Assembly (NCBI GenBank): GCA_021793895.1
Contig: JAJYRW010000114.1
Coordinates: 1 to 5,596, forward strand
Source of the DNA: Actinomycetes bacterium
GTDB lineage: Bacteria > Actinomycetota > Actinomycetes > Actinomycetales > JAJYRW01
Direction of reading: 5' to 3'
DNA length: 5,596 bases
Positions 1 through 5,596 of the stretch are shown in pieces. The translations under genes were made by a program, and so were the position numbers. Each line of letters opens with the position of its first letter. The stretch's first letter is position 1. The notes beneath the pieces are model-generated. The model was not told where the DNA came from. It did no database searches and was given only the letters and a program-made list of their open reading frames with translations.

Positions 1-834
1 CCAAATGATGAATAGTGTCATGGAAATCGCGCCAATTAGTAGAAATATGGGAATTATTGAAACAGGTTTATCCATCGACCAGGTCAGGCCAAAGACGGTG
101 AAGTCTTGTTGTGGCACCCACCAGCCCAGATCCGAGCCCTCAATGACAGCAAAAACGAAGGCGCCCAAGCCGATAACGCTCAGCTGCAGGCCGTCGACGT
201 CTAGGCCGCGGCCGCCGGCTCGCCCGCGCGTGTTGGGAACGAGGAAGAACGCGGCGATGAACAGGATAAGCCCCAGGGGCACGTTAATGAGAAAAATCCA
301 TTCCCATGCGAACGATGAGGTCAGCCAGCCGCCCAGCAGCGGGCCGATGGCGGCGGCGCCGGCCATGACTGCGCCCCAAACACCAAACGCCATTGCGCGG
401 TCTTTGCCCCGAAAAACTGCATTAACTGTTGAAAGTGTGGAGGGCAAAATCAGGGCTCCGCCCACTCCCTGCACCACGCGGGCCCAAATTAATGGCGCTG
501 CGGCATCCGAATTAGCGGCCAACAGGCTGCCAATGACGAAGACGGCGATGCCCGCGACGAAGAGATGTCGTCTTCCCAGCCGGTCCCCCAGTCGGCCCAT
601 GCCCAATAAGAGCGCTGCGAAGACCACCGAGTAGAGGCTGTTGATCCACTGCGCGTCGGTCAAAGTCAAATCGAGGTCTTGAATGATGACGGGCTGCGCC
701 ACGGAGACGATCGTGCCGTCCATCACAATTAGCGCGAGGCCCGCGGCAAGTACTGCCAGGCCGGCCCAAGGGTGGGTAGGGTGCTCGGAGTTGTTCACGC
801 GAGCCACGTTGCCATGGGCAATCGCGCTTGGCAT
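1..834 (-). CDS. DHA2-type (EmrB/QacA-like) MFS multidrug exporter, N-terminal part, runs off the left edge
   Basis: The reading frame is open from ATG at 834 to base 1, giving 278 codons with no stop, so the C-terminus lies outside the window. After a short cytoplasmic N-terminus, hydrophobic helices begin near residue 24. The first holds LIVMDGTIVSVAQP, the D-x-T-I-V-x-V-A-x-P signature of drug:H+ antiporters. MGRLGDRLGRRHLF (about residues 79-92) is MFS motif A in the first cytoplasmic loop. GPLLGGWLTSSFAWEWIFLI followed by NVPLG (about 164-188) is the motif C region typical of DHA2 (14-helix) exporters. The family pumps drugs or cationic compounds out using proton motive force; the substrate here cannot be read. 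The gene begins 56 bp after the lipoprotein stop, and no convincing promoter lies between, so co-transcription is possible. The start is the only ATG before the first helix after an in-frame stop at 898-900. A modest AGGA lies 11 nt upstream, farther than ideal. A long plus-strand ORF over the same bases is a shadow. Confidence 0.93.
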   Translation of the reverse strand, partial: MPSAIAHGNVARVNNSEHPTHPWAGLAVLAAGLALIVMDGTIVSVAQPVIIQDLDLTLTDAQWINSLYSVVFAALLLGMGRLGDRLGRRHLFVAGIAVFVIGSLLAANSDAAAPLIWARVVQGVGGALILPSTLSTVNAVFRGKDRAMAFGVWGAVMAGAAAIGPLLGGWLTSSFAWEWIFLINVPLGLILFIAAFFLVPNTRGRAGGRGLDVDGLQLSVIGLGAFVFAVIEGSDLGWWVPQQDFTVFGLTWSMDKPVSIIPIFLLIGAISMTLFIIW

Positions 835-890
835 TTTGGCGCAAATCCTGCACCCGTGCTGCTGGGCATGCTGTGGATTTTGCGGTTTAG

Positions 891-1442
891 CTACTGGTTA
901 AATTTTGCCTCGACCACTGCTTGTTCTTCACCGGCAGAGGCCGCTTCGTTTTCAATGCGCAATTCGACGGTGTCGTCATTTTCGGTATTCGTGTAGGTCA
1001 CGAACACCGAACCGGCTCCGGCATCGTGTGCGGTCTGGTCCCAGTGCGGGCCTCCGGCCTGGCCGTAATCGGTTAATGTATCGATGACTTCGTCATTGGC
1101 GAATTGATGCATTTGGTTTTCATCACCATTGCCCCACGCGATTATGAGCGCGTCGGCGTGATCGACCGGATCATGTGGAATGGCCGCGGGTTCGTCCGGG
1201 TCCGAGGTATAAGTTTCTGACGGGCTGGGGCTGGACTTTGATGGACTGGAAGTAGGTGTCTCGTCATCTTCCGAATCGCCAGGTGTGGTCGGGGTGGGTG
1301 CGGGCGCATTTTCGTCTGACTGATTGGTGTCGGAGGGCTGGGGGGAAGGAGTGGCCTCGTCATTTTGTGAACCGCAGCCGGCAAATAAGAGCACCGTAAA
1401 TGAGATGGTGCCAAGCAGTTTTGTTGCAGAGATGAAAGCCAT
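891..1442 (-). CDS. Putative secreted lipoprotein with Pro/Ser/Thr-rich linker
   Basis: The protein has 183 residues. Residues 1-22 form a hydrophobic signal peptide (MAFISATKLLGTISFTVLLF) ending in A-G-C23, a lipobox-like site with Phe at -3. Cys23 would be lipidated and anchor the protein on the outer face of the membrane. Residues 26-90 are a low-complexity, acidic, Pro/Ser/Thr-rich spacer typical of actinobacterial lipoproteins that cross the cell wall. Residues 93-183 form a small globular domain starting VDHADALIIAWGNGDENQM. Its pattern resembles the helix-plus-sheet layout of NTF2-like domains in actinobacterial lipoproteins, but that is only an impression. I do not recognise the gene and assign no function. 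The start at 1442 is preferred because AAGG lies 7 nt upstream and the signal peptide begins there. A longer frame opens at TTG 1499 but adds a histidine-rich stretch unlike a signal peptide. The gene lies 103 bp downstream of the ABC permease and 56 bp upstream of the MFS gene. Confidence 0.85.
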   Translation of the reverse strand: MAFISATKLLGTISFTVLLFAGCGSQNDEATPSPQPSDTNQSDENAPAPTPTTPGDSEDDETPTSSPSKSSPSPSETYTSDPDEPAAIPHDPVDHADALIIAWGNGDENQMHQFANDEVIDTLTDYGQAGGPHWDQTAHDAGAGSVFVTYTNTENDDTVELRIENEAASAGEEQAVVEAKFNQ

Positions 1443-1475
1443 GATGTGCCTTGGCAAATATTGGGTGCAGTGGCC

Positions 1476-1495
1476 CAATCCATGATGCTGGATTG
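1476..1495. repeat. 7-bp inverted repeat upstream of the lipoprotein gene
   Basis: CAATCCA (1476-1482) and TGGATTG (1489-1495) are perfect inverted copies separated by 6 nt. A second overlapping pair, ATTGGG (1460-1465) and CCCAAT (1474-1479), shares bases with it, so two alternative hairpins are possible. The repeat overlaps a minus-strand TTGACA at 1494-1499, but no good -10 box follows at 16-18 nt. It may be an operator or a short RNA hairpin in the 103-bp gap after the permease gene. The rest of that gap (about 1500-1545) is GC-rich with nothing I can name. Confidence 0.4.
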
Positions 1496-1545
1496 TCAAA
1501 GTGGCGCAACTGGGATTTTTCGCAAGCGGGGCGGGGCGGTGAAAA

Positions 1546-2346
1546 TCAGCGACCCAGTTCCAAGTTTTGCCAGGTGCGCCAGGTAAAGACTGCTCCTGCC
1601 ACCCCCACAGCTAGTGACAGTGAAAGTTGGGCGGCATTTACAGCGCTGCCGTTACTCATTGCCCACAGCGCCGGAGCTGTGAAGGGAAACCAGCCGCCGA
1701 TTCCCGCTAGCCCTCCGACCTGAGAAAATATGGCCAGGCAGATCGCACCGCCCACGGCGGCCAGGATGGAGCGCGATTGTGCCGCGAGCCAGGCGACGGG
1801 TGTGGTGATAGCAGCCGTGAAAATTGTCAACGCCCACTGGCGAAAAAGCCCCTGCCAAACCTCACCTGTGGGCAGGCCGTAGGAAAAGGCAAGACCGAGA
1901 CTGAGGATTCCCAAAGTCAATGCGGTACTAATAATCACGGCCCAGATGGCGTAAACAACTAGTTTCGCCCCGGCGATGCGGCCCCGGCTGATGGGGAGAG
2001 CGAATAATCCGGCAATGGTTCCGTCGGTGAATTCGCGAGCTATGAGCCAGGCAAGAACCACTCCAAACCCGATGAGTCCGCCGGCTGCAGTTATTTGGCC
2101 CGCCCCCAGTAAGAGCCCGTCCCAGTTCAGGTTGGCGGCTGGGCCGGCTTGGGCAATGAGTTCTTCGTTGCCGCTTGCTACACCGGCCGTAATACCAGTC
2201 AGCAACGCAAGTGTTCCCACGATTAAAGCGCTCGAAGCAATGATGCCCACCAGGGAGCGCCGCAATTTGTGGGCCTCAGCTCGGATTGCCGTACCGAGCC
2301 CCGGGCGTGCGGCTATTTTGCTTATGCTCAGAGTGCGCGAATTCAT
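1546..2346 (-). CDS. ABC-2 type transporter permease
   Basis: The protein has 266 residues and about six membrane helices (roughly 32-52, 83-103, 128-152, 170-189, 194-212 and 240-256). AREFTDGTIAGLFALPISR (103-121), followed by GRIAGAKLVV, is the conserved stretch of ABC-2 permeases in which an acidic residue and Gly-Thr precede a Pro-(Ile/Leu)-Ser-Arg turn and a lysine. Such permeases pair with a separate BcrA/NatA-like ATPase to export drugs, peptides or lipids; which one cannot be told here. The ATPase gene lies directly upstream with 10 nt between its stop and this ATG. GAGG, overlapping that stop codon (TTGAGG), serves as the ribosome-binding site 8 nt before the ATG, so translation is probably coupled. 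The gene is part of the tetR-ATPase-permease operon. The basic N-terminal segment (residues 10-30) is cytoplasmic. Nothing looks truncated. Confidence 0.9.
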   Translation of the reverse strand: MNSRTLSISKIAARPGLGTAIRAEAHKLRRSLVGIIASSALIVGTLALLTGITAGVASGNEELIAQAGPAANLNWDGLLLGAGQITAAGGLIGFGVVLAWLIAREFTDGTIAGLFALPISRGRIAGAKLVVYAIWAVIISTALTLGILSLGLAFSYGLPTGEVWQGLFRQWALTIFTAAITTPVAWLAAQSRSILAAVGGAICLAIFSQVGGLAGIGGWFPFTAPALWAMSNGSAVNAAQLSLSLAVGVAGAVFTWRTWQNLELGR

Positions 2347-2356
2347 AGCTGCAGCC

Positions 2357-3106
2357 TCAATTCGGCTCGGCCGCCGCGCTCTCTAGCATTTGAGCATGGG
2401 CGGCAGTTTGGCGGTTACGGTCATCCACGTGGATCCGGTTAAAGAAGGTCCGCTCCAAATCAGGGCCGGTGGTGTGCAGCTCGCCGATTAGTCGCCCGTG
2501 ATTCATTAGGATGATGCGATCTGCAATCCGCGCTACTTCGTCCAAATGATGGCTGCTGACCAGGATCGCTGCTCCGCTTTGAGCGCTTTTAGTTAGCTCA
2601 TTTCGCAGGAAAATAACTGATGCGGGATCCAAAGAATTCGATGGTTCATCGAGAAATATCAAATCGGGATCATGTTGCAGGGCTGCTGCTAAACCCACGC
2701 GCTGGCGATTGCCCAGCGATAGTTGGCTAAAGGGCCGCCGCGCAAGTGGTTCCAAGCCCCAGGTTTCGATCGCTTCGGTGACGCAGTCCCTATCAGCGCC
2801 ACGCAGAGAAGCGGCGAGTTGCAGATTTTCAGCCGTACTGAGCTCTGGATAAGCAAGCGCTGTTTCCACGGCCGCGCCCACATGTGCCCATTTCTGGATT
2901 GGCAGCTGACCTAGCGGCGTGCCAAAGATCTCGATGTGACCATCTTGTGGTCGGAGCATTTCTAGCGCCAAGCGCATCAGCGTTGTTTTGCCCGCGCCAT
3001 TCAGGCCAATTAGGGCGAGGATTTCGCCAGGATCGACGCCGAATGTTAATTCTTCAACTCCGGCGCCATTAGGGAATTTTCGAGTGACGCCTGCAAAGCG
3101 AAGCAT
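2357..3106 (-). CDS. ABC transporter ATP-binding protein (BcrA/DrrA/NatA-like)
   Basis: The protein is a complete 249-residue nucleotide-binding subunit. Walker A is GLNGAGKTT (34-42), and the ABC signature is LSLGNRQR (129-136), with Leu in place of the usual second Gly-side residue, as is common in ABC-2 exporter ATPases. Walker B is LIFLDEP (149-155), the D-loop NSLDP (157-161) and the H-loop histidine H186 in SSHHLDEV. The Q-loop region reads VGAAVETALAYPELSTAENL, with Glu where many ABC ATPases have Gln. This is the pattern of bacitracin/lantibiotic/daunorubicin self-protection transporters (BcrA, DrrA). The protein binds the cytoplasmic side of the permease encoded next and powers export. 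The ATG overlaps the tetR stop by one base (TAATG), and a strong GGAGG lies 6 nt upstream, inside the end of tetR. The substrate is unknown; an antimicrobial is the natural guess from the neighbours but is inference. Confidence 0.95.
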   Translation of the reverse strand: MLRFAGVTRKFPNGAGVEELTFGVDPGEILALIGLNGAGKTTLMRLALEMLRPQDGHIEIFGTPLGQLPIQKWAHVGAAVETALAYPELSTAENLQLAASLRGADRDCVTEAIETWGLEPLARRPFSQLSLGNRQRVGLAAALQHDPDLIFLDEPSNSLDPASVIFLRNELTKSAQSGAAILVSSHHLDEVARIADRIILMNHGRLIGELHTTGPDLERTFFNRIHVDDRNRQTAAHAQMLESAAAEPN

Positions 3107-3651
3107 TAGGAACCTCCAAGTAGATCTAAGGCGTCATCGATTACTTGGCCCAGGTCCGCCTGCTCTGAATTGGCCCAGGTGAGTAACGCTGCACTCAGGC
3201 CGGCGATGACGGCAGCGGTAGCCACGCCGGCTACTTCAGCGGGAACACCCCTTTCGATCAGTGCCTCGGTTAAGGCAGCCCGTGTCTCGTTAGTGTTTCG
3301 TTCGATCGCTCCCTGCAAATTTGGTGTTTGGGCGATAAGGAGTAGGGAGGCACGCAGGGCATTCACGGAATCTGCATCGATGCTGTGCCAAGTCGTGCGC
3401 ACTGCCTCGGTTAATGCCCGCATCGGGGACTCATGAGCTGGGCGCTGGCGAACCTCATCTGCAATGACGGCATCGAAGGGATCTTCTAAAAGCAGGGCCT
3501 CCTTCGATGGAAAATGGCGAAAAAGTGTCATCTCGCTCACGCCCGCCCGCTGGGCGATTTGCGCAGTGCCGGTAGCGGCATAGCCCTGCGTCATAAACAG
3601 CTGCATGGCCACTTCTTGCAGGCGGTCGTGGGTTTTTTGCCAGCGCGACAT
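3106..3651 (-). CDS. TetR/AcrR-family transcriptional repressor of the downstream ABC operon
   Basis: The protein has 181 residues from ATG 3651. Residues 8-50 form the TetR DNA-binding domain: RLQEVAMQLFMTQGY, then a helix-turn-helix TAQIAQRAGVSEMTLFRHF, then PSKEALL. The rest is a helical ligand-binding and dimerisation domain with no family signature I can name. It probably represses its own operon (tetR, ABC ATPase, ABC permease) and is released by the exported compound, as is usual for TetR proteins beside exporters. The start was chosen because a promoter (TTGACG-17 nt-TAACAT) places its transcription start exactly on this ATG, 7 nt after the -10 box. No Shine-Dalgarno sequence precedes it, so the mRNA is probably leaderless. 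A longer frame from TTG 3687 would begin inside the -35 box and translate the operator, which is unlikely; ATG 3673-3675 has the same problem. The stop TAA overlaps the ATPase ATG. Confidence 0.92.
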   Translation of the reverse strand: MSRWQKTHDRLQEVAMQLFMTQGYAATGTAQIAQRAGVSEMTLFRHFPSKEALLLEDPFDAVIADEVRQRPAHESPMRALTEAVRTTWHSIDADSVNALRASLLLIAQTPNLQGAIERNTNETRAALTEALIERGVPAEVAGVATAAVIAGLSAALLTWANSEQADLGQVIDDALDLLGGS

Positions 3652-3682
3652 GGCTGCAATGTTAGTTACTAACATTGCAGCC
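3652..3682. promoter_or_regulatory. 31-bp perfect palindromic operator over the tetR promoter
   Basis: GGCTGCAATGTTAGT (3652-3666), a single central T (3667) and ACTAACATTGCAGCC (3668-3682) form a perfect 15-bp inverted repeat. It touches the -35 box by one base, covers the spacer and -10 box, and ends on the base before the tetR ATG. A TetR dimer (or pair of dimers) bound here would block RNA polymerase and also mask the start codon region. The length, perfect symmetry and position next to a TetR gene make this the likely autorepression site. That the protein binds it is inference. Confidence 0.88.
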
Positions 3683-3687
3683 GTCAA
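3659..3687 (-). promoter_or_regulatory. tetR-ABC operon promoter, apparently leaderless
   Basis: On the minus strand, TTGACG (3682-3687) is followed by a 17-nt spacer and TAACAT (3659-3664), close to the housekeeping sigma consensus and to the actinobacterial TAnnnT -10 form. Seven nt later comes the A of the tetR ATG (3651), the usual distance to a transcription start, so mRNA would begin at the start codon. The -35 box contains the arr stop codon (TGA, 3684-3686), so this promoter lies within the end of arr. Confidence 0.82.
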
Positions 3688-4127
3688 TCGTCTATTATTG
3701 CGCGCCCTTCCCGCTCGAGTTCGGCCAGCGAATTGCGCATCTGTGCAATTTGCTCCGGCGTGTGGCCGGTCCAGTGCGCTAGCTCACCGACAATTCGCAC
3801 GGGATCAACTGAGCGGAATGACAGAGTCGGGTTTCCGGGAAACCGCTTATCGGTCACGTTGGGATCATCTTCATATTGCCCTAGCGGTTCAACGATGTAG
3901 ATCCGCTCATGCCCGTCGCCAGCAGCAAGTTCAGCGCCCCAGGCGGCGGCGTCGAGCGTTTTGGTGAAGTAGACGTGGTTCGAAATGCGCCCCTTTTCGA
4001 AGTTGGAAATTTGCCCGGGGCTCAGCACTGCACCGACTTCGAATTTTGCTTTTGTGCCATGTAGGAAGGCACCAGATTCATGCGGCTCAAATGGAACGGG
4101 CGGAGTGCGGCGGTCGTTTTGCTGCAT
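3684..4127 (-). CDS. arr: Arr, rifamycin (rifampin) NAD+-dependent ADP-ribosyltransferase
   Basis: Arr transfers ADP-ribose from NAD+ to the C23 hydroxyl of the rifamycin ansa bridge, which stops the drug binding RNA polymerase; it is a small cytoplasmic enzyme. The sequence follows mycobacterial Arr throughout: PFEPHESGAFLHGTKA, then SNFEKGR..NHVYFTKTLDAA, then WGAELAAG, IYIVEPLG, YEDDPNVTDK and FPGNPT. The three residues known to matter in Arr (His19, Tyr49 and Asp84 in Mycobacterium smegmatis) align with the His of LHGT, the Tyr of HVYFT and the second Asp of YEDDPN, at the same mutual spacings. The product is 147 residues, normal for the family. The start at 4127 has GGAG 6 nt upstream. 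ATG 4139, four codons earlier, has no ribosome-binding site but lies 7 nt after a TAATTT box and could be a leaderless start. The stop lies inside the tetR promoter, and erm lies upstream. Identification is firm; only the start is open. Confidence 0.95.
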   Translation of the reverse strand: MQQNDRRTPPVPFEPHESGAFLHGTKAKFEVGAVLSPGQISNFEKGRISNHVYFTKTLDAAAWGAELAAGDGHERIYIVEPLGQYEDDPNVTDKRFPGNPTLSFRSVDPVRIVGELAHWTGHTPEQIAQMRNSLAELEREGRAIIDD

Positions 4128-4146
4128 AGATTTCTCCATTTTCTGA

Positions 4147-4175
4147 AAATTAGGACTAAAACAGACTCCCGACAG
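4147..4175 (-). promoter_or_regulatory. Candidate arr promoter
   Basis: TAATTT (4147-4152, minus strand) fits the TAnnnT -10 form and lies exactly 7 nt before ATG 4139, the same geometry as the tetR and erm-leader promoters here. The -35 position (about CTGTCG, 4170-4175, 17-nt spacer) is poor, so an activator or a different upstream promoter may be needed. A second possible -10, TATCAT, lies at about 4248-4253, upstream of the left inverted-repeat copy, also without a good -35 box. Confidence 0.45.
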
Positions 4176-4218
4176 GTAGGGAGGAGTTCAGGTAAGCGTA
4201 TGTAGTGCTCAGGTTGGC

Positions 4219-4237
4219 GGGGTTCTGACGTAACCCC
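4219..4237. promoter_or_regulatory. 19-bp inverted repeat, rifamycin-associated-element-like
   Basis: GGGGTTCTGACGTAACCCC is a 6-bp perfect inverted repeat around a 7-nt centre, about 80 bp upstream of the arr start. A near copy, inverted and with one changed base, lies at 4312-4330. Rifamycin-inactivation genes of actinomycetes are known to carry a 19-bp GGGG...CCCC inverted repeat upstream (the rifamycin-associated element, RAE) that is needed for rifampin induction. Length, GGGG/CCCC ends and position before arr match my recollection of it, but the inner bases differ from what I remember. Assignment is tentative. On the plus strand the hairpin is followed by CTAG and six Ts (4242-4247), which looks like a terminator, but no plus-strand gene reads into it. 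Confidence 0.4.
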
Positions 4238-4267
4238 CTAGTTTTTTAGATGATAATCGCGGTTTTG

Positions 4268-4304
4268 AGTCACTTCAGTCACATCAGTAGCGTTCAGTCA
4301 CATT
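4268..4304. repeat. Degenerate 9-10 bp tandem repeat (AGTCACWTC)
   Basis: Between the two inverted-repeat arms, AGTCACTTC, AGTCACATC, AGTAGCGTTC and AGTCACATT follow each other directly. Three of the four units keep AGTCAC, and an 11-mer TTCAGTCACAT occurs twice, 19 nt apart. Such head-to-tail short units resemble iterated binding sites for a regulator or replication-type protein. No protein that would bind them can be identified in this window. Confidence 0.6.
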
Positions 4305-4368
4305 TCCCAAAGGGGTTACGTCAGAACTCCGCCAAACACGCGAGTATCGCGACTTGAGCATGGCGGGT

Positions 4369-5151
4369 TTATCTATCCATCACCTCTTTTCGCTTCTCCA
4401 ACGCATTCCAAAGCCCCACCCACTGTTTCGGCCTGATCTGGCGTGGAAGTACGCCCGGATCAATGCCCATCTCGCGAAGAACCTTGCGGGCGCCGCGACG
4501 CTCAATCCGAGCCGCGGTAGCAAATATCGCAGTAAATGTTTTTCCGCGGCCGGTAAAAACTCTGCGCACAAGACGCTCGTAACTGGACCGTTGCTCGGGA
4601 GCTATTAGCGGACGCTTTCGCCGGTTAATGGTGATTATTCCGCCGTCCACGCTCGGACGCGGCGTAAATCCCCATGCTGGAACACGACCTTCTAAGGAGA
4701 TCTCAAACCAGGGCGCGGCTTGCGCGCTCATCAGGGTTCCTCCCCCAACACTGGCTCGTTTTTTCGCCACTTCCCACTGCGTCATTAACACCGCGTTTTG
4801 CCACGTCCCCTCCGCTAAAAGGCGACGCAAAATTGGAGTAGTGAGGTGGAATGGCAAATTTCCCACAATCGTTGGACTATCTAATTGGCATTGCAAAACG
4901 TCACCGTGCCGAACACAAACCTCGGGAAAGCGTTGTTTAAGCTTCGCCACGCGTCGCTCATCAAGCTCGATTACGGTAAGCGGGCGCCGCAAAGCAAGCA
5001 GGCGGCGCGTTACCGCTCCATCGCCAGGACCAATTTCAAGGATCTCTCCGGATGTTCGCGCCGCTAACTCTACGATCAGCCGCAGCGTCGGCTTATGATG
5101 CAAAAAATTTTGGCCAAGTTCGTGTCGGCCGCCAAAGGATGAATGAGGCAT
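4369..5151 (-). CDS. erm: Erm(X)-like 23S rRNA (adenine-N6)-methyltransferase, macrolide-lincosamide-streptogramin B resistance
   Basis: Erm enzymes methylate N6 of A2058 in 23S rRNA using S-adenosylmethionine, which blocks macrolides, lincosamides and streptogramin B at the exit tunnel. The 260-residue protein has GRHELGQNFL (8-17, motif X), ILEIGPGDGAVT (37-48, SAM motif I), the acidic VIELD (60-64, motif II), HGDVL (82-86, motif III) and the catalytic GNLPFHLTT (97-105, motif IV). QWEVAKKRASVG (125-136) and PRPSVDGG (164-171) are typical of actinobacterial Erm(X)-type enzymes and set it apart from KsgA/Dim1. It lacks the long Arg-rich tail of Erm(X), which is about 284 residues as I recall. 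It is recognisably diverged from Erm(X), so I give the family symbol only. GGAG at 5159-5162, 7 nt before ATG 5151, fixes the start; the same bases can pair with upstream RNA. A leader peptide with a macrolide-arrest motif precedes it, implying drug-inducible expression. No clear terminator follows. Confidence 0.95.
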   Translation of the reverse strand: MPHSSFGGRHELGQNFLHHKPTLRLIVELAARTSGEILEIGPGDGAVTRRLLALRRPLTVIELDERRVAKLKQRFPEVCVRHGDVLQCQLDSPTIVGNLPFHLTTPILRRLLAEGTWQNAVLMTQWEVAKKRASVGGGTLMSAQAAPWFEISLEGRVPAWGFTPRPSVDGGIITINRRKRPLIAPEQRSSYERLVRRVFTGRGKTFTAIFATAARIERRGARKVLREMGIDPGVLPRQIRPKQWVGLWNALEKRKEVMDR

Positions 5152-5211
5152 AACAGCACTCCGAAAATAAACAGGGGTGGAGCGCCTCGAAAATTAGCGG
5201 CGTCAAGTATG

Positions 5212-5249
5212 AAAAAAGGGGCCGCTCCCGAAGCGCAGGACTTTCGGAG
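5212..5249 (-). terminator. Possible attenuator hairpin with U6 tract inside the erm leader
   Basis: On the minus strand, hairpin CTCCGAAAG/CTTCGGGAG (5225-5249, 7-nt loop) is followed by CGGCCCC and six Ts (5212-5217). The gap between stem and U tract is long for a good terminator. A larger alternative stem, GGTCGCTCC (5276-5284) with GGAGCGGCC (5220-5228, one G-U), would end 2 nt before the U tract. Premature termination in the leader is therefore possible besides, or instead of, control at translation. Confidence 0.35.
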
Positions 5250-5290
5250 AGACGGCAGGCTGCGTCAGTAAGACTGGAGCGACCGTGCCG

Positions 5291-5350
5291 TCAGGCGCGG
5301 CGGTCGCGGAAAAGCAGCGTGCGCGTCGAAGCGCTCTTGATGTATGCCAT
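5291..5350 (-). CDS. erm leader peptide (19 aa) with C-terminal RDRR macrolide-arrest motif
   Basis: The frame encodes MAYIKSASTRTLLFRDRRA and then TGA. Arg15-Asp16-Arg17 matches the Arg/Lys-X-Arg/Lys (+X+) motif at which macrolide- or ketolide-bound ribosomes stall, as established for the ErmD-type leader (Arg-Leu-Arg); the Erm(X) leader is also of this type as I remember it. The peptide acts in cis: a stalled ribosome would cover the leader's first helix, whose 5' arm lies on the R15-D16-R17 codons, and change the folding of the erm 5' region. The ATG is the predicted transcription start itself (TAAAGT then 7 nt), so translation would be leaderless, and there is no ribosome-binding site. 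The stop lies 139 nt before the erm ATG. The sequence differs from leaders I can recall. Position, length, motif and RNA pairing agree; function is inference. Confidence 0.8.
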   Translation of the reverse strand: MAYIKSASTRTLLFRDRRA

Positions 5351-5357
5351 GGGAAAT

Positions 5358-5387
5358 ACTTTAACGCCTACGCACGTCATTTGTCAA
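5358..5387 (-). promoter_or_regulatory. erm leader/erm promoter, apparently leaderless
   Basis: On the minus strand, TTGACA (5382-5387) is a perfect -35 box, followed by an 18-nt spacer and TAAAGT (5358-5363), an actinobacterial TAnnnT -10 box. Seven nt later is the A of the leader-peptide ATG (5350). The -35 box contains the stop codon (TGA, 5384-5386) of the upstream TetR-like gene. I see no A/T-rich WhiB7-type element just upstream of the -35 box. Confidence 0.82.
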
Positions 5388-5596
5388 CGCAGCTGGGCAG
5401 CCTGGCCATCCAACTGCAAGCGTTGCGTCACCGCCCGCGCGCGGGCCACTGGGTCTTTAGGAACCGGCAAAGCACCACTGAGCCAAATACTCACCAGCCC
5501 GTGGACAAGTGAAAATGCCGCGAGCGCATCAGCCGGCGTACCCGACTCATTCGGCGTCCCCGGCCCACGCAGTGCGGCAGATGCACCCCGGGCACC
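5384..5596 (-). CDS. TetR-family regulator, C-terminal fragment entering from the right edge
   Basis: The frame is open from base 5596 to a TGA at 5384-5386, giving the last 70 residues of a protein whose start is outside the window. After a Gly/Pro/Ala-rich stretch comes ADALAAFSLVHGLVSIWLSG, then ALPVPKDP, then ARARAVTQRL. The F-S-L-V-H-G-L-V-S pattern is that of the C-terminal ligand-binding and dimerisation domain of the TetR 'WHG' group (TetR_C_33), in which a His-Gly sits in a hydrophobic helix. The N-terminal DNA-binding domain is not visible, so the call rests on this motif and on length. It may regulate a neighbour beyond the window. Control of erm is not implied, because erm has its own leader. 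Its stop codon is shared with the -35 box of the erm promoter. The plus-strand frame over 5285-5512 is a shadow. Confidence 0.75.
   Translation of the reverse strand, partial: GARGASAALRGPGTPNESGTPADALAAFSLVHGLVSIWLSGALPVPKDPVARARAVTQRLQLDGQAAQLR

What the first reader, a model, noticed from the sequence alone, without database searches (positions are those of the whole stretch)
5291..5350. Unannotated leaderless 19-aa leader peptide with an RDR arrest motif ahead of erm
Seen: a TTGACA-18-TAAAGT promoter puts its start on the ATG of MAYIKSASTRTLLFRDRRA-stop, 139 nt before an erm gene. Known: +X+ peptides stall on macrolide-bound ribosomes and induce erm genes. Inference: this is the inducer-sensing peptide of this erm. 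The sequence is not one I recognise. Asp as X between the arginines, and a leaderless mRNA starting at the sensing peptide, would be unusual for an erm leader.
Basis: partly seen in the sequence, partly recalled or inferred. Interest (0 to 1): 0.8.

Follow-up and report, generated by a model that had tools for sequence, protein, structure and literature searches.

The report
RDRRA leader peptide before erm gene
A 19-amino-acid leader peptide gene whose ending, RDRRA, is conserved in four related plasmid loci from three bacterial genera sits in front of a predicted macrolide-resistance methyltransferase gene, and it likely switches that gene on by stalling drug-bound ribosomes; this is a new variant of a known kind of switch.

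Summary
The 19-codon ORF at 5291-5350(-) lies 139 nt before an erm gene (NF000499, 227.5 bits against a cut-off of 212). Its promoter is TTGACA-18-TAAAGT. The last codons plus stop and 4 nt (22 nt, RDRRA*) are identical upstream of all four plasmid erm genes found with 55-60% Erm identity (Dietzia x2, Rhodococcus, Kocuria); the preceding leader codons are 40-52% identical between the three lineages. The conserved codons also form the first arm of a set of mutually exclusive RNA helices that reach the erm Shine-Dalgarno.

A leaderless leader peptide is not unusual here: in all 16 erm loci (of 18 examined) where a leader could be assigned, TANNNT lies 6-7 nt before its start, against 0 of 239 other starts. 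Asp before Arg has a precedent in ErmBL, where Asp in the P site with Arg in the A site stalls on erythromycin.

No stalling, transcription start or switching was measured. Equilibrium folding supports the switch only in part, because the Shine-Dalgarno stays paired. Verdict: new variant of a known kind.

The parts
5358..5387 (-). Predicted promoter: TTGACA (5382-5387), 18-nt spacer, TAAAGT (5358-5363), followed by a 7-nt discriminator and the leader ATG
   Evidence: the same 6-7 nt spacing of TANNNT in 16 of 16 assigned erm leaders
5291..5350 (-). Leader peptide ORF MAYIKSASTRTLLFRDRRA*; predicted leaderless, start codon at the predicted transcription start
   Evidence: RDRRA* conserved in L003-L006
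5300..5308 (-). R15-D16-R17 codons (CGC GAC CGC), predicted macrolide stall site with D16 in the P site and R17 in the A site
   Evidence: sequence; +X+ and Asp-Lys/Arg stalling from PMC8298421 (passages) and PMC4935803 (section 12); not tested here
5287..5308 (-). 22-nt block identical in five loci of three lineages (RDRRA codons, stop, CGGC); RNA arm 1 and part of arm 2
5286..5292 (-). RNA arm 2 (GACGGCA), pairs with arm 3a
   Evidence: 7-bp helix in all five sequences, one compensatory change
5251..5257 (-). RNA arm 3a (UGCCGUC)
5242..5248 (-). RNA arm 3b (UCCGAAA), pairs with arm 4 (6 bp of it) or with arm 6 (7 bp)
   Evidence: the 8-nt inverted repeat contains the 3b:6 pairing
5227..5236 (-). 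RNA arm 4 (GCGCUUCGGG), pairs with arm 3b or arm 5
   Evidence: 9-bp 4:5 helix in all five sequences, one compensatory change
5179..5190 (-). RNA arm 5 (UCGAGGCGCUCC), pairs with arm 4 or with the Shine-Dalgarno arm 6
5156..5166 (-). RNA arm 6 with the erm Shine-Dalgarno GGAG (5159-5162), paired in both predicted off-states
5212..5235 (-). Terminator-like stem followed by U6 (5212-5217); L003-L006 have at most U3 there
4369..5151 (-). erm gene, 260 aa, 23S rRNA adenine methyltransferase; over the broad Erm cut-off, below the cut-off of every named class listed

Best explanation
The 19-codon ORF at 5291-5350(-) ends in RDRRA, an ending conserved upstream of the four closest plasmid erm genes found, and is likely the macrolide-sensing leader peptide of the erm gene behind it, predicted to be read from a leaderless mRNA. 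Predicted order of events: transcription starts at or beside the leader ATG, so a ribosome loads directly on the 5' end. Without drug it reads through and the RDRRA codons (arm 1) pair just downstream; arms 3b:4 and 5:6 then form and bury the erm Shine-Dalgarno. With a macrolide bound, the ribosome would stall with D16 in the P site and R17 in the A site and cover arm 1. Arm 2 would then pair with 3a, arm 4 would leave 3b for arm 5, and arm 5 could no longer hold the Shine-Dalgarno, so erm would be translated. Shown: the ORF, the promoter-like sequence and its spacing, conservation of RDRRA*, and conservation of each helix. Inferred: the transcription start, the stall, its position, the order of rearrangement, and that erm output rises.
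For: Position and erm identity. RDRRA* lies upstream of 4 of 4 plasmid erm genes with at least 55% Erm identity: L003 MGKLICGFAAAHSLAVRDRRA, L004 MGNLICGFAAACSLAVRDRRA, L005 MGNLICGFAAAYSLAVRDRRA, L006 MGTICTAPVTGRFFTFRDRRA. Between the three lineages the 22-nt block is 100% identical, against 39.6-52.4% for the leader codons before it, 57.5-61.1% for the rest of the upstream region and 56.5-63.1% for erm DNA. TANNNT lies 6-7 nt before the leader start in 16 of 16 assigned leaders, against 0 of 26 other in-frame starts and 0 of 239 other ATG/GTG upstream of erm in 14 of the loci. R-X-R occurs in 12 of 16 leaders: RDR 5, RLR 5, RFR 1, RIR 1. Eight helices of 5 bp or more are canonical in all five sequences, the longest 9 bp; 200 column shuffles give mean 0.7, at most 5, longest 6 bp. 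There are both-side changes in 2:3, 4:5, 3:4 and 3:6, and sliding the partner drops pairing from 100% to at most 59% (the helices were chosen for pairing in all five, so the 100% itself is by selection). In the window and in Kocuria, a ribosome footprint at D16 moves the partly made transcript from 3:4 (0.76 and 0.87) to 4:5 (0.99 and 0.85) before the Shine-Dalgarno emerges. In the window the footprint raises start-codon accessibility from 0.15 to 0.58; the combined gain over ribosome-binding site and start codon is reached by 0 of 60 shuffles. Literature: erythromycin arrests at +X+ and at XDK (PMC8298421, abstract and passages); with Asp10 in the P site, Arg in the A site stalls ErmBL three times better than Lys (PMC4935803, section 12).
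Against: No stall, 5' end or induction was measured. The Shine-Dalgarno stays mostly paired with the footprint in place (unpaired at most 0.25 in all five sequences; window 0.00), because 3b:6 or 5:6 can still form. The 3:4-to-4:5 toggle before the Shine-Dalgarno emerges is seen in 2 of 5 sequences (window, Kocuria), not in L003 or L004, and L005 goes the other way; a terminating ribosome gives a similar shift. The gain in start-site accessibility is at chance in L003 (20 of 60 shuffles) and L006 (22 of 60), and over all 14 actinobacterial loci folded it is at most 3 of 60 in only 5 (window, L004, L005, L011, L014). The stalled ribosome would cover the first three nt of the 2:3 helix. Three of the five sequences are near relatives, so there are only about three independent lineages, and both-side changes are 2 pairs at most in any structure (20 of 500 shuffles reach that for 2:3 plus 4:5, 45 for 3:6 plus 4:5; 104 reach the single one of 3:4 plus 5:6). 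The block never varies, so coding and RNA constraint cannot be told apart inside it. Four erm(46) leaders have EFRRF with no +X+, so +X+ is not essential to this leader type. Macrolides stall at only a subset of R/K-X-R/K motifs: erythromycin does not stall at the RYR of tlrB (PMC6851288, passages).
Confidence: 0.7

Rival explanations
1. Transcription attenuation rather than translation attenuation: in the window the 3:4 hairpin followed by U6 would end transcription before erm without drug, and a stalled ribosome would favour 2:3 and 4:5 and let RNA polymerase through. Both layers could act together, as reported for tlrB.
For: Terminator-like stem at 5235-5223 with a T run. In the window the 3:4 hairpin extends to 14 predicted pairs, -18.0 kcal/mol for the stretch, with U6 3 nt behind it. 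The footprint removes 3:4 in the partial window transcript. tlrB uses an RYR leader with both a terminator and a Shine-Dalgarno-sequestering hairpin (PMC6851288, passages).
Against: Only the window has the U run; L003-L006 have at most U3 there, while the Shine-Dalgarno pairings 5:6 and 3:6 are kept in all five. Terminator-like sites are only mildly above shuffles (4 found, mean 1.5, sd 1.1).
Confidence: 0.2
2. A leader peptide that arrests elsewhere: the working part is the shared ending R-R-(A or F)-stop, with stalling at the second arginine or at termination, not at D16/R17.
For: 11 of 16 leaders end in R-R-(A/F)-stop; the 4 erm(46) leaders among them (EFRRF) have no +X+. A terminating-ribosome footprint gives RNA shifts like the stalled one.
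Against: 12 of 16 leaders keep R-X-R. +X+ and Asp-Arg/Lys are documented macrolide stall sites. The footprint edge of a D16 stall (nt 61, set here as P site + 15) falls in the first nucleotides of arm 2.
Confidence: 0.15
3. The conserved block is RNA structure only and the ORF is not a sensor; erm is controlled by something else.
For: The block is identical at every nucleotide, silent positions included, and takes part in the conserved pairings 2:3 and 1:5 and in the predicted 1:2 hairpin.
Against: The ORF is open and starts 7 nt behind TANNNT in all five loci. Other classes keep R-X-R-R-(F)-stop with different codons (RFRRF in L009, RIRRF in L013). A leader ORF before erm is the known arrangement.
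Confidence: 0.08

Closest known systems
ErmDL and other R-L-R erm leaders (+X+ arrest; PMC8298421, abstract and passages)
   Same: R-X-R in a short ORF before erm; stall expected with X in the P site and Arg in the A site
   Different: X is Asp, the leader is predicted leaderless, and the motif sits at the very end of the ORF (RDRRA-stop)
ErmBL leader of ermB (PMC4935803, passages and section 12)
   Same: Asp in the P site followed by a basic residue in the A site; Arg there stalls three times better than Lys
   Different: ErmBL also needs Arg three residues before Asp; here that position is L (window), A or T, and not conserved. Sequence homology was not tested
erm(X), erm(36), erm(46), erm(50), erm(51) and erm(55) leaders of actinobacterial plasmids (L008-L015, L050, L051; leaders read here; an erm(X) leader peptide gene is mentioned in PMC3350403, passage)
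   Same: Short ORF predicted leaderless, 6-7 nt behind TANNNT; erm(36) and erm(55) share R-X-R-R-(F)-stop
   Different: X is F, I or L, or the motif is EFRRF; RNA homology to this clade was not tested
tlrB/yxjB leader of Bacillus subtilis, RYR (PMC6851288, passages)
   Same: R-X-R at the C-terminus; terminator plus Shine-Dalgarno sequestration
   Different: The gene product methylates G748 of 23S rRNA; the leader has its own Shine-Dalgarno; responds to tylosin, not erythromycin
hflXr/rli80 leader of Listeria monocytogenes, RLR (PMC6310831, passages)
   Same: R-X-R small ORF controlling a macrolide/lincosamide resistance gene through alternative RNA structures
   Different: Transcription attenuation; other gene; not described as leaderless in the passages read

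Membership tests
Macrolide-inducible erm leader-peptide attenuator | Short ORF upstream of and in the same direction as an erm gene | tested here: met
Macrolide-inducible erm leader-peptide attenuator | Recognised arrest motif (here +X+) | tested here: met
   R15-D16-R17 in the sequence; motif class from PMC8298421
Macrolide-inducible erm leader-peptide attenuator | Leader conserved upstream of homologous erm genes | tested here: met
   RDRRA* in 4 of 4 plasmid loci with at least 55% Erm identity; relatives known only as proteins could not be checked
Macrolide-inducible erm leader-peptide attenuator | erm Shine-Dalgarno held in a conserved helix | tested here: met
   5:6 and 3:6 pair in all five sequences; GGAG unpaired 0.01-0.10 in the free transcripts
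Macrolide-inducible erm leader-peptide attenuator | Ribosome on the leader releases the Shine-Dalgarno | tested here: inconclusive
   Helix switching seen in part; Shine-Dalgarno not freed at equilibrium
Macrolide-inducible erm leader-peptide attenuator | Drug-dependent stalling and induction | not testable with these tools
   needs toeprinting and a reporter
Leaderless mRNA | Transcription start at or next to the start codon | tested here: inconclusive
   Predicted from TANNNT-7-ATG, with 6-7 nt in 16 of 16 assigned leaders; 5' end not mapped
Erm 23S rRNA methyltransferase (NF000499) | Score over the curated cut-off | tested here: met
   227.5 bits against 212
Named Erm classes (Erm46, Erm55, Erm38, Erm37 and others) | Score over the class cut-off | tested here: not met
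   Best is Erm46, 251.8 bits against 503

The most novel reading that the evidence does not exclude
A distinct class of macrolide sensor shared by Micrococcales and Mycobacteriales: leaderless mRNAs that begin with the sensing peptide itself, load a 70S ribosome at the 5' end, and stall it at R-D-R, a site that joins the +X+ code and the ErmBL Asp-basic code. The same RDRRA codons serve as arm 1 of the RNA switch. More broadly, the erm leaders of actinobacterial plasmids would be leaderless as a rule.
Probability: 0.4. Interest if true: 0.65.

Novelty: new variant of a known kind. Interest (0 to 1): 0.5.

Why it matters
If the spacing rule holds at the bench, actinobacterial erm attenuators start directly with the sensing codons, so induction depends on leaderless initiation, which leaders with their own Shine-Dalgarno (tlrB, for one) do not use. 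RDR would be a natural arrest site with an acidic residue between two arginines, testable by toeprinting, and would show whether the +X+ and ErmBL-type stalls are one mechanism or two. It also gives annotators a simple mark for leaders that the gene tables seen here leave out: TANNNT 6-7 nt before a short ORF, often ending R-R-(A/F)-stop.

Tried and rejected
Genome context: no whole genome is held for the window. The single genome-contig scan with one protein found only two distant Deltaproteobacterial loci, and a search of one of them and its relatives gave 0 of 58 genomes over the Erm cut-off. Viral contigs: two protein scans gave no erm relative; a third scan gave 32 hits of the degenerate RDRRA block, none with an erm by tblastn. 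Phage records: 33 records, all matches under 60% identity; the 15 rows seen were at most 32.3%. Rfam: two matches, both below the gathering score and elsewhere in the window. DNA search with the leader region alone in plasmids: only the same four loci stood out (E 3e-5 to 0.06); the other 24 of 28 records had E of 0.8 or worse.

Rejected: the in-frame ATG at 5380 as leader start (it lies in the promoter spacer); the ORF at 5384-5596 as part of the leader (it looks like the end of a TetR_C_33 protein, below the cut-off); a plain two-hairpin model with four arms (more arms are conserved).

Limits: of the 40 best plasmid rows (H1-H40 of 1546 records) I fetched 17; the other 23 are labelled erm(46), erm(X) or erm(50), classes already sampled. 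Of the 17, L052 has an IS3 inserted before erm and in L053 (Delftia) I could assign no leader, so leader counts are out of 16 including the window. Comparator leader starts were picked by eye, knowing the spacing pattern; therefore lists all 42 in-frame starts (8-40 codons), of which 16, one per locus, have the spacing. The helices were selected for pairing in all five sequences, so their 100% pairing is not independent evidence; the column shuffles and slides are the controls, and column shuffles break up runs of conserved sequence. The pE194 control was read 2 nt off its start codon (0.00 to 0.61; 4 of 60 shuffles reach the gain), so it is only a rough yardstick.

Full report
WHAT IS THERE. 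The window carries, all on the minus strand, an erm gene (4369-5151; NF000499, 227.5 bits, cut-off 212), a rifampin ADP-ribosyltransferase (3684-4139), a TetR regulator, an ABC ATPase and an ABC permease, a protein with no family match, and the start of a DHA2-type MFS exporter. No whole genome is held. Named relatives of the Erm among the 120 of 1373 hits listed are actinobacterial (Leucobacter, Microbacterium, Kocuria and others), and those of the permease likewise (Micropruina, Calidifontibacter, Brevibacterium and others). The Erm is below the cut-off of every named class listed.

THE LEADER. Upstream of erm, 5291-5350 encodes MAYIKSASTRTLLFRDRRA, ending 139 nt before the erm start. TTGACA-18-TAAAGT lies 7 nt before its ATG. 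The promoter match alone is not above chance (1 found, 0.6 expected).

CONSERVATION. Seventeen plasmid erm loci were fetched, out of the 40 best rows. The four with at least 55% Erm identity, which are all the listed rows above 48%, each have a 21-codon ORF ending RDRRA-stop that starts 203-209 nt before erm: Dietzia kunjamensis L003 and L004, Rhodococcus qingshengii L005, Kocuria rosea L006. L003-L005 are close to each other, so these are two further lineages. A block of 22 nt (R-D-R-R-A-stop plus CGGC) is identical in all five. Between the three lineages erm DNA is 56.5-63.1% identical, the upstream region outside the block 57.5-61.1%, and the leader codons before the block 39.6-52.4%. None of the four is annotated as a leader in the tables seen, which the tool describes as incomplete.

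LEADERLESS IS THE RULE HERE. Leaders could be assigned in the window and 15 of the 17 loci. L052 has an IS3 element before erm, and in L053 (Delftia) I could assign none. In these 16 the leader ORFs have 42 in-frame starts of 8-40 codons; 16, one per locus, have TANNNT 6-7 nt upstream, and the other 26 do not. Of 239 other ATG or GTG codons upstream of erm in the first 14 loci, none has it. I chose the comparator starts by eye, knowing the pattern; listing every in-frame start is the guard against that. Mycobacteria use leaderless mRNAs commonly (PMC4633059, title, start of abstract and one passage; the word erm does not occur there). I found no paper describing leaderless erm leader peptides in searches (listings; passages of PMC4974804, PMC4128351 and PMC4633059). 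That library lacks most subscription papers. I recall, from no call, that ermE itself was reported as leaderless.

THE ARREST MOTIF. X in R-X-R is Asp in this clade (5 of 16), Leu in 5, Phe in 1, Ile in 1, and four erm(46) leaders have EFRRF instead. 11 of 16 end R-R-(A/F)-stop. Erythromycin arrests at +X+ and also at XDK (PMC8298421, abstract and passages). In ErmBL, Asp10 sits in the P site and Lys11 in the A site, and Arg11 stalls threefold better (PMC4935803, section 12). Exchanging two residues of ErmCL for Asp-Lys extended its response to telithromycin (same paper, passage). So R-D-R would meet two known stall codes at one place. ErmBL also needs Arg at -3, which is absent here. The window has Leu at -3, a residue enriched at that place in erythromycin-selected ErmBL variants (PMC6238534, passage), but the relatives do not keep it.

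THE RNA. On an alignment of the five leader-to-erm transcripts, eight helices of at least 5 bp are canonical in all five; 200 column shuffles give 0.7 on average and at most 5, and no helix longer than 6 bp against 9 observed. The main ones in the window are 2:3a GACGGCA:UGCCGUC, 3b:4 UCCGAA:UUCGGG, 3b:6 UCCGAAA:UUUCGGA, 4:5 GCGCUUCGG:UCGAGGCGC and 5:6 GCGCUCC:GGAGUGC, arm 6 holding the Shine-Dalgarno. They were picked for pairing in all five, so 100% pairing follows from the choice; slid controls pair at most 59%. There are both-side changes in 2:3, 4:5, 3:4 and 3:6 and not in 5:6. Covariation is thin: 20 of 500 shuffles reach the value for 2:3 plus 4:5, 45 of 500 for 3:6 plus 4:5, and 104 of 500 for 3:4 plus 5:6. 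Arm 1 is the RDRRA codons; its 1:2 hairpin was not among the helices conserved column by column and differs in detail between lineages. The free window transcript (5130-5350) folds 3.1 sd below shuffles.

DOES A STALL SWITCH IT? Blocking nucleotides up to P site + 15 mimics a ribosome at D16. Before the Shine-Dalgarno emerges, this turns 3:4 into 4:5 in the window (3:4 0.76 to 0.00-0.01, 4:5 0.00 to 0.99) and in Kocuria (0.87 to 0.01, 0.00 to 0.85), but not in L003 or L004, and L005 moves the other way. Once the Shine-Dalgarno is made, 5:6 falls in L003 and L004 (0.74 and 0.97 to 0.00 and 0.01 at 209 nt; at full length 0.43 to 0.33 and 0.70 to 0.04), and hardly in Kocuria. GGAG nevertheless stays mostly paired (unpaired at most 0.25), and a terminating ribosome gives much the same shifts. 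Accessibility of the erm start codon rises with the footprint in the window (0.15 to 0.58; the combined gain with the ribosome-binding site is reached by 0 of 60 shuffles), L004 (2 of 60) and L005 (3 of 60), not in L003 (20 of 60) or L006 (22 of 60). Among the nine other actinobacterial erm loci folded, L014 (0 of 60) and L011 (1 of 60) show it, the other seven do not (6 to 54 of 60). This supports a switch made during transcription in outline and leaves its final step open.

TERMINATION AS A SECOND LAYER. Only the window has U6 (5212-5217) behind 3:4; the relatives have at most U3. The window could therefore add transcription attenuation, as the RYR leader of tlrB combines both (PMC6851288, passages).

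VERDICT. A conserved erm leader peptide, not annotated in the relatives' tables, predicted leaderless, with R-D-R as likely stall site: a new variant of a known kind. The leaderless start is ordinary for this group. The Asp and the reuse of the stall codons as a switch arm are the specific features.

Noticed in passing
window 4214-4237 and 4312-4335: 24-nt inverted repeat, 96% complementary, 74 nt apart, between arr and erm; could be the ends of a small mobile element or a two-way terminator. No plasmid match to the stretch.
   Followed up: partly
window 1-5151: erm, rifampin ADP-ribosyltransferase, a TetR with an ABC exporter, and a DHA2 MFS exporter lie together on one strand, a compact resistance-like block.
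   Followed up: no
L008, L014, L050, L051: erm(46) leaders end EFRRF-stop with no +X+ motif although they are otherwise like the erm(36) RFRRF and erm(55) RIRRF leaders; how they sense drug is unexplained.
   Followed up: partly
L052 around 998: In Glutamicibacter nicotianae plas-AT6 an IS3 element sits directly before erm(X) and the leader was not found there.
   Followed up: no
window 5384-5596: C-terminal end of a TetR-like protein (TetR_C_33, below cut-off) just upstream of the leader, same strand; its stop codon overlaps the predicted -35 element.
   Followed up: no
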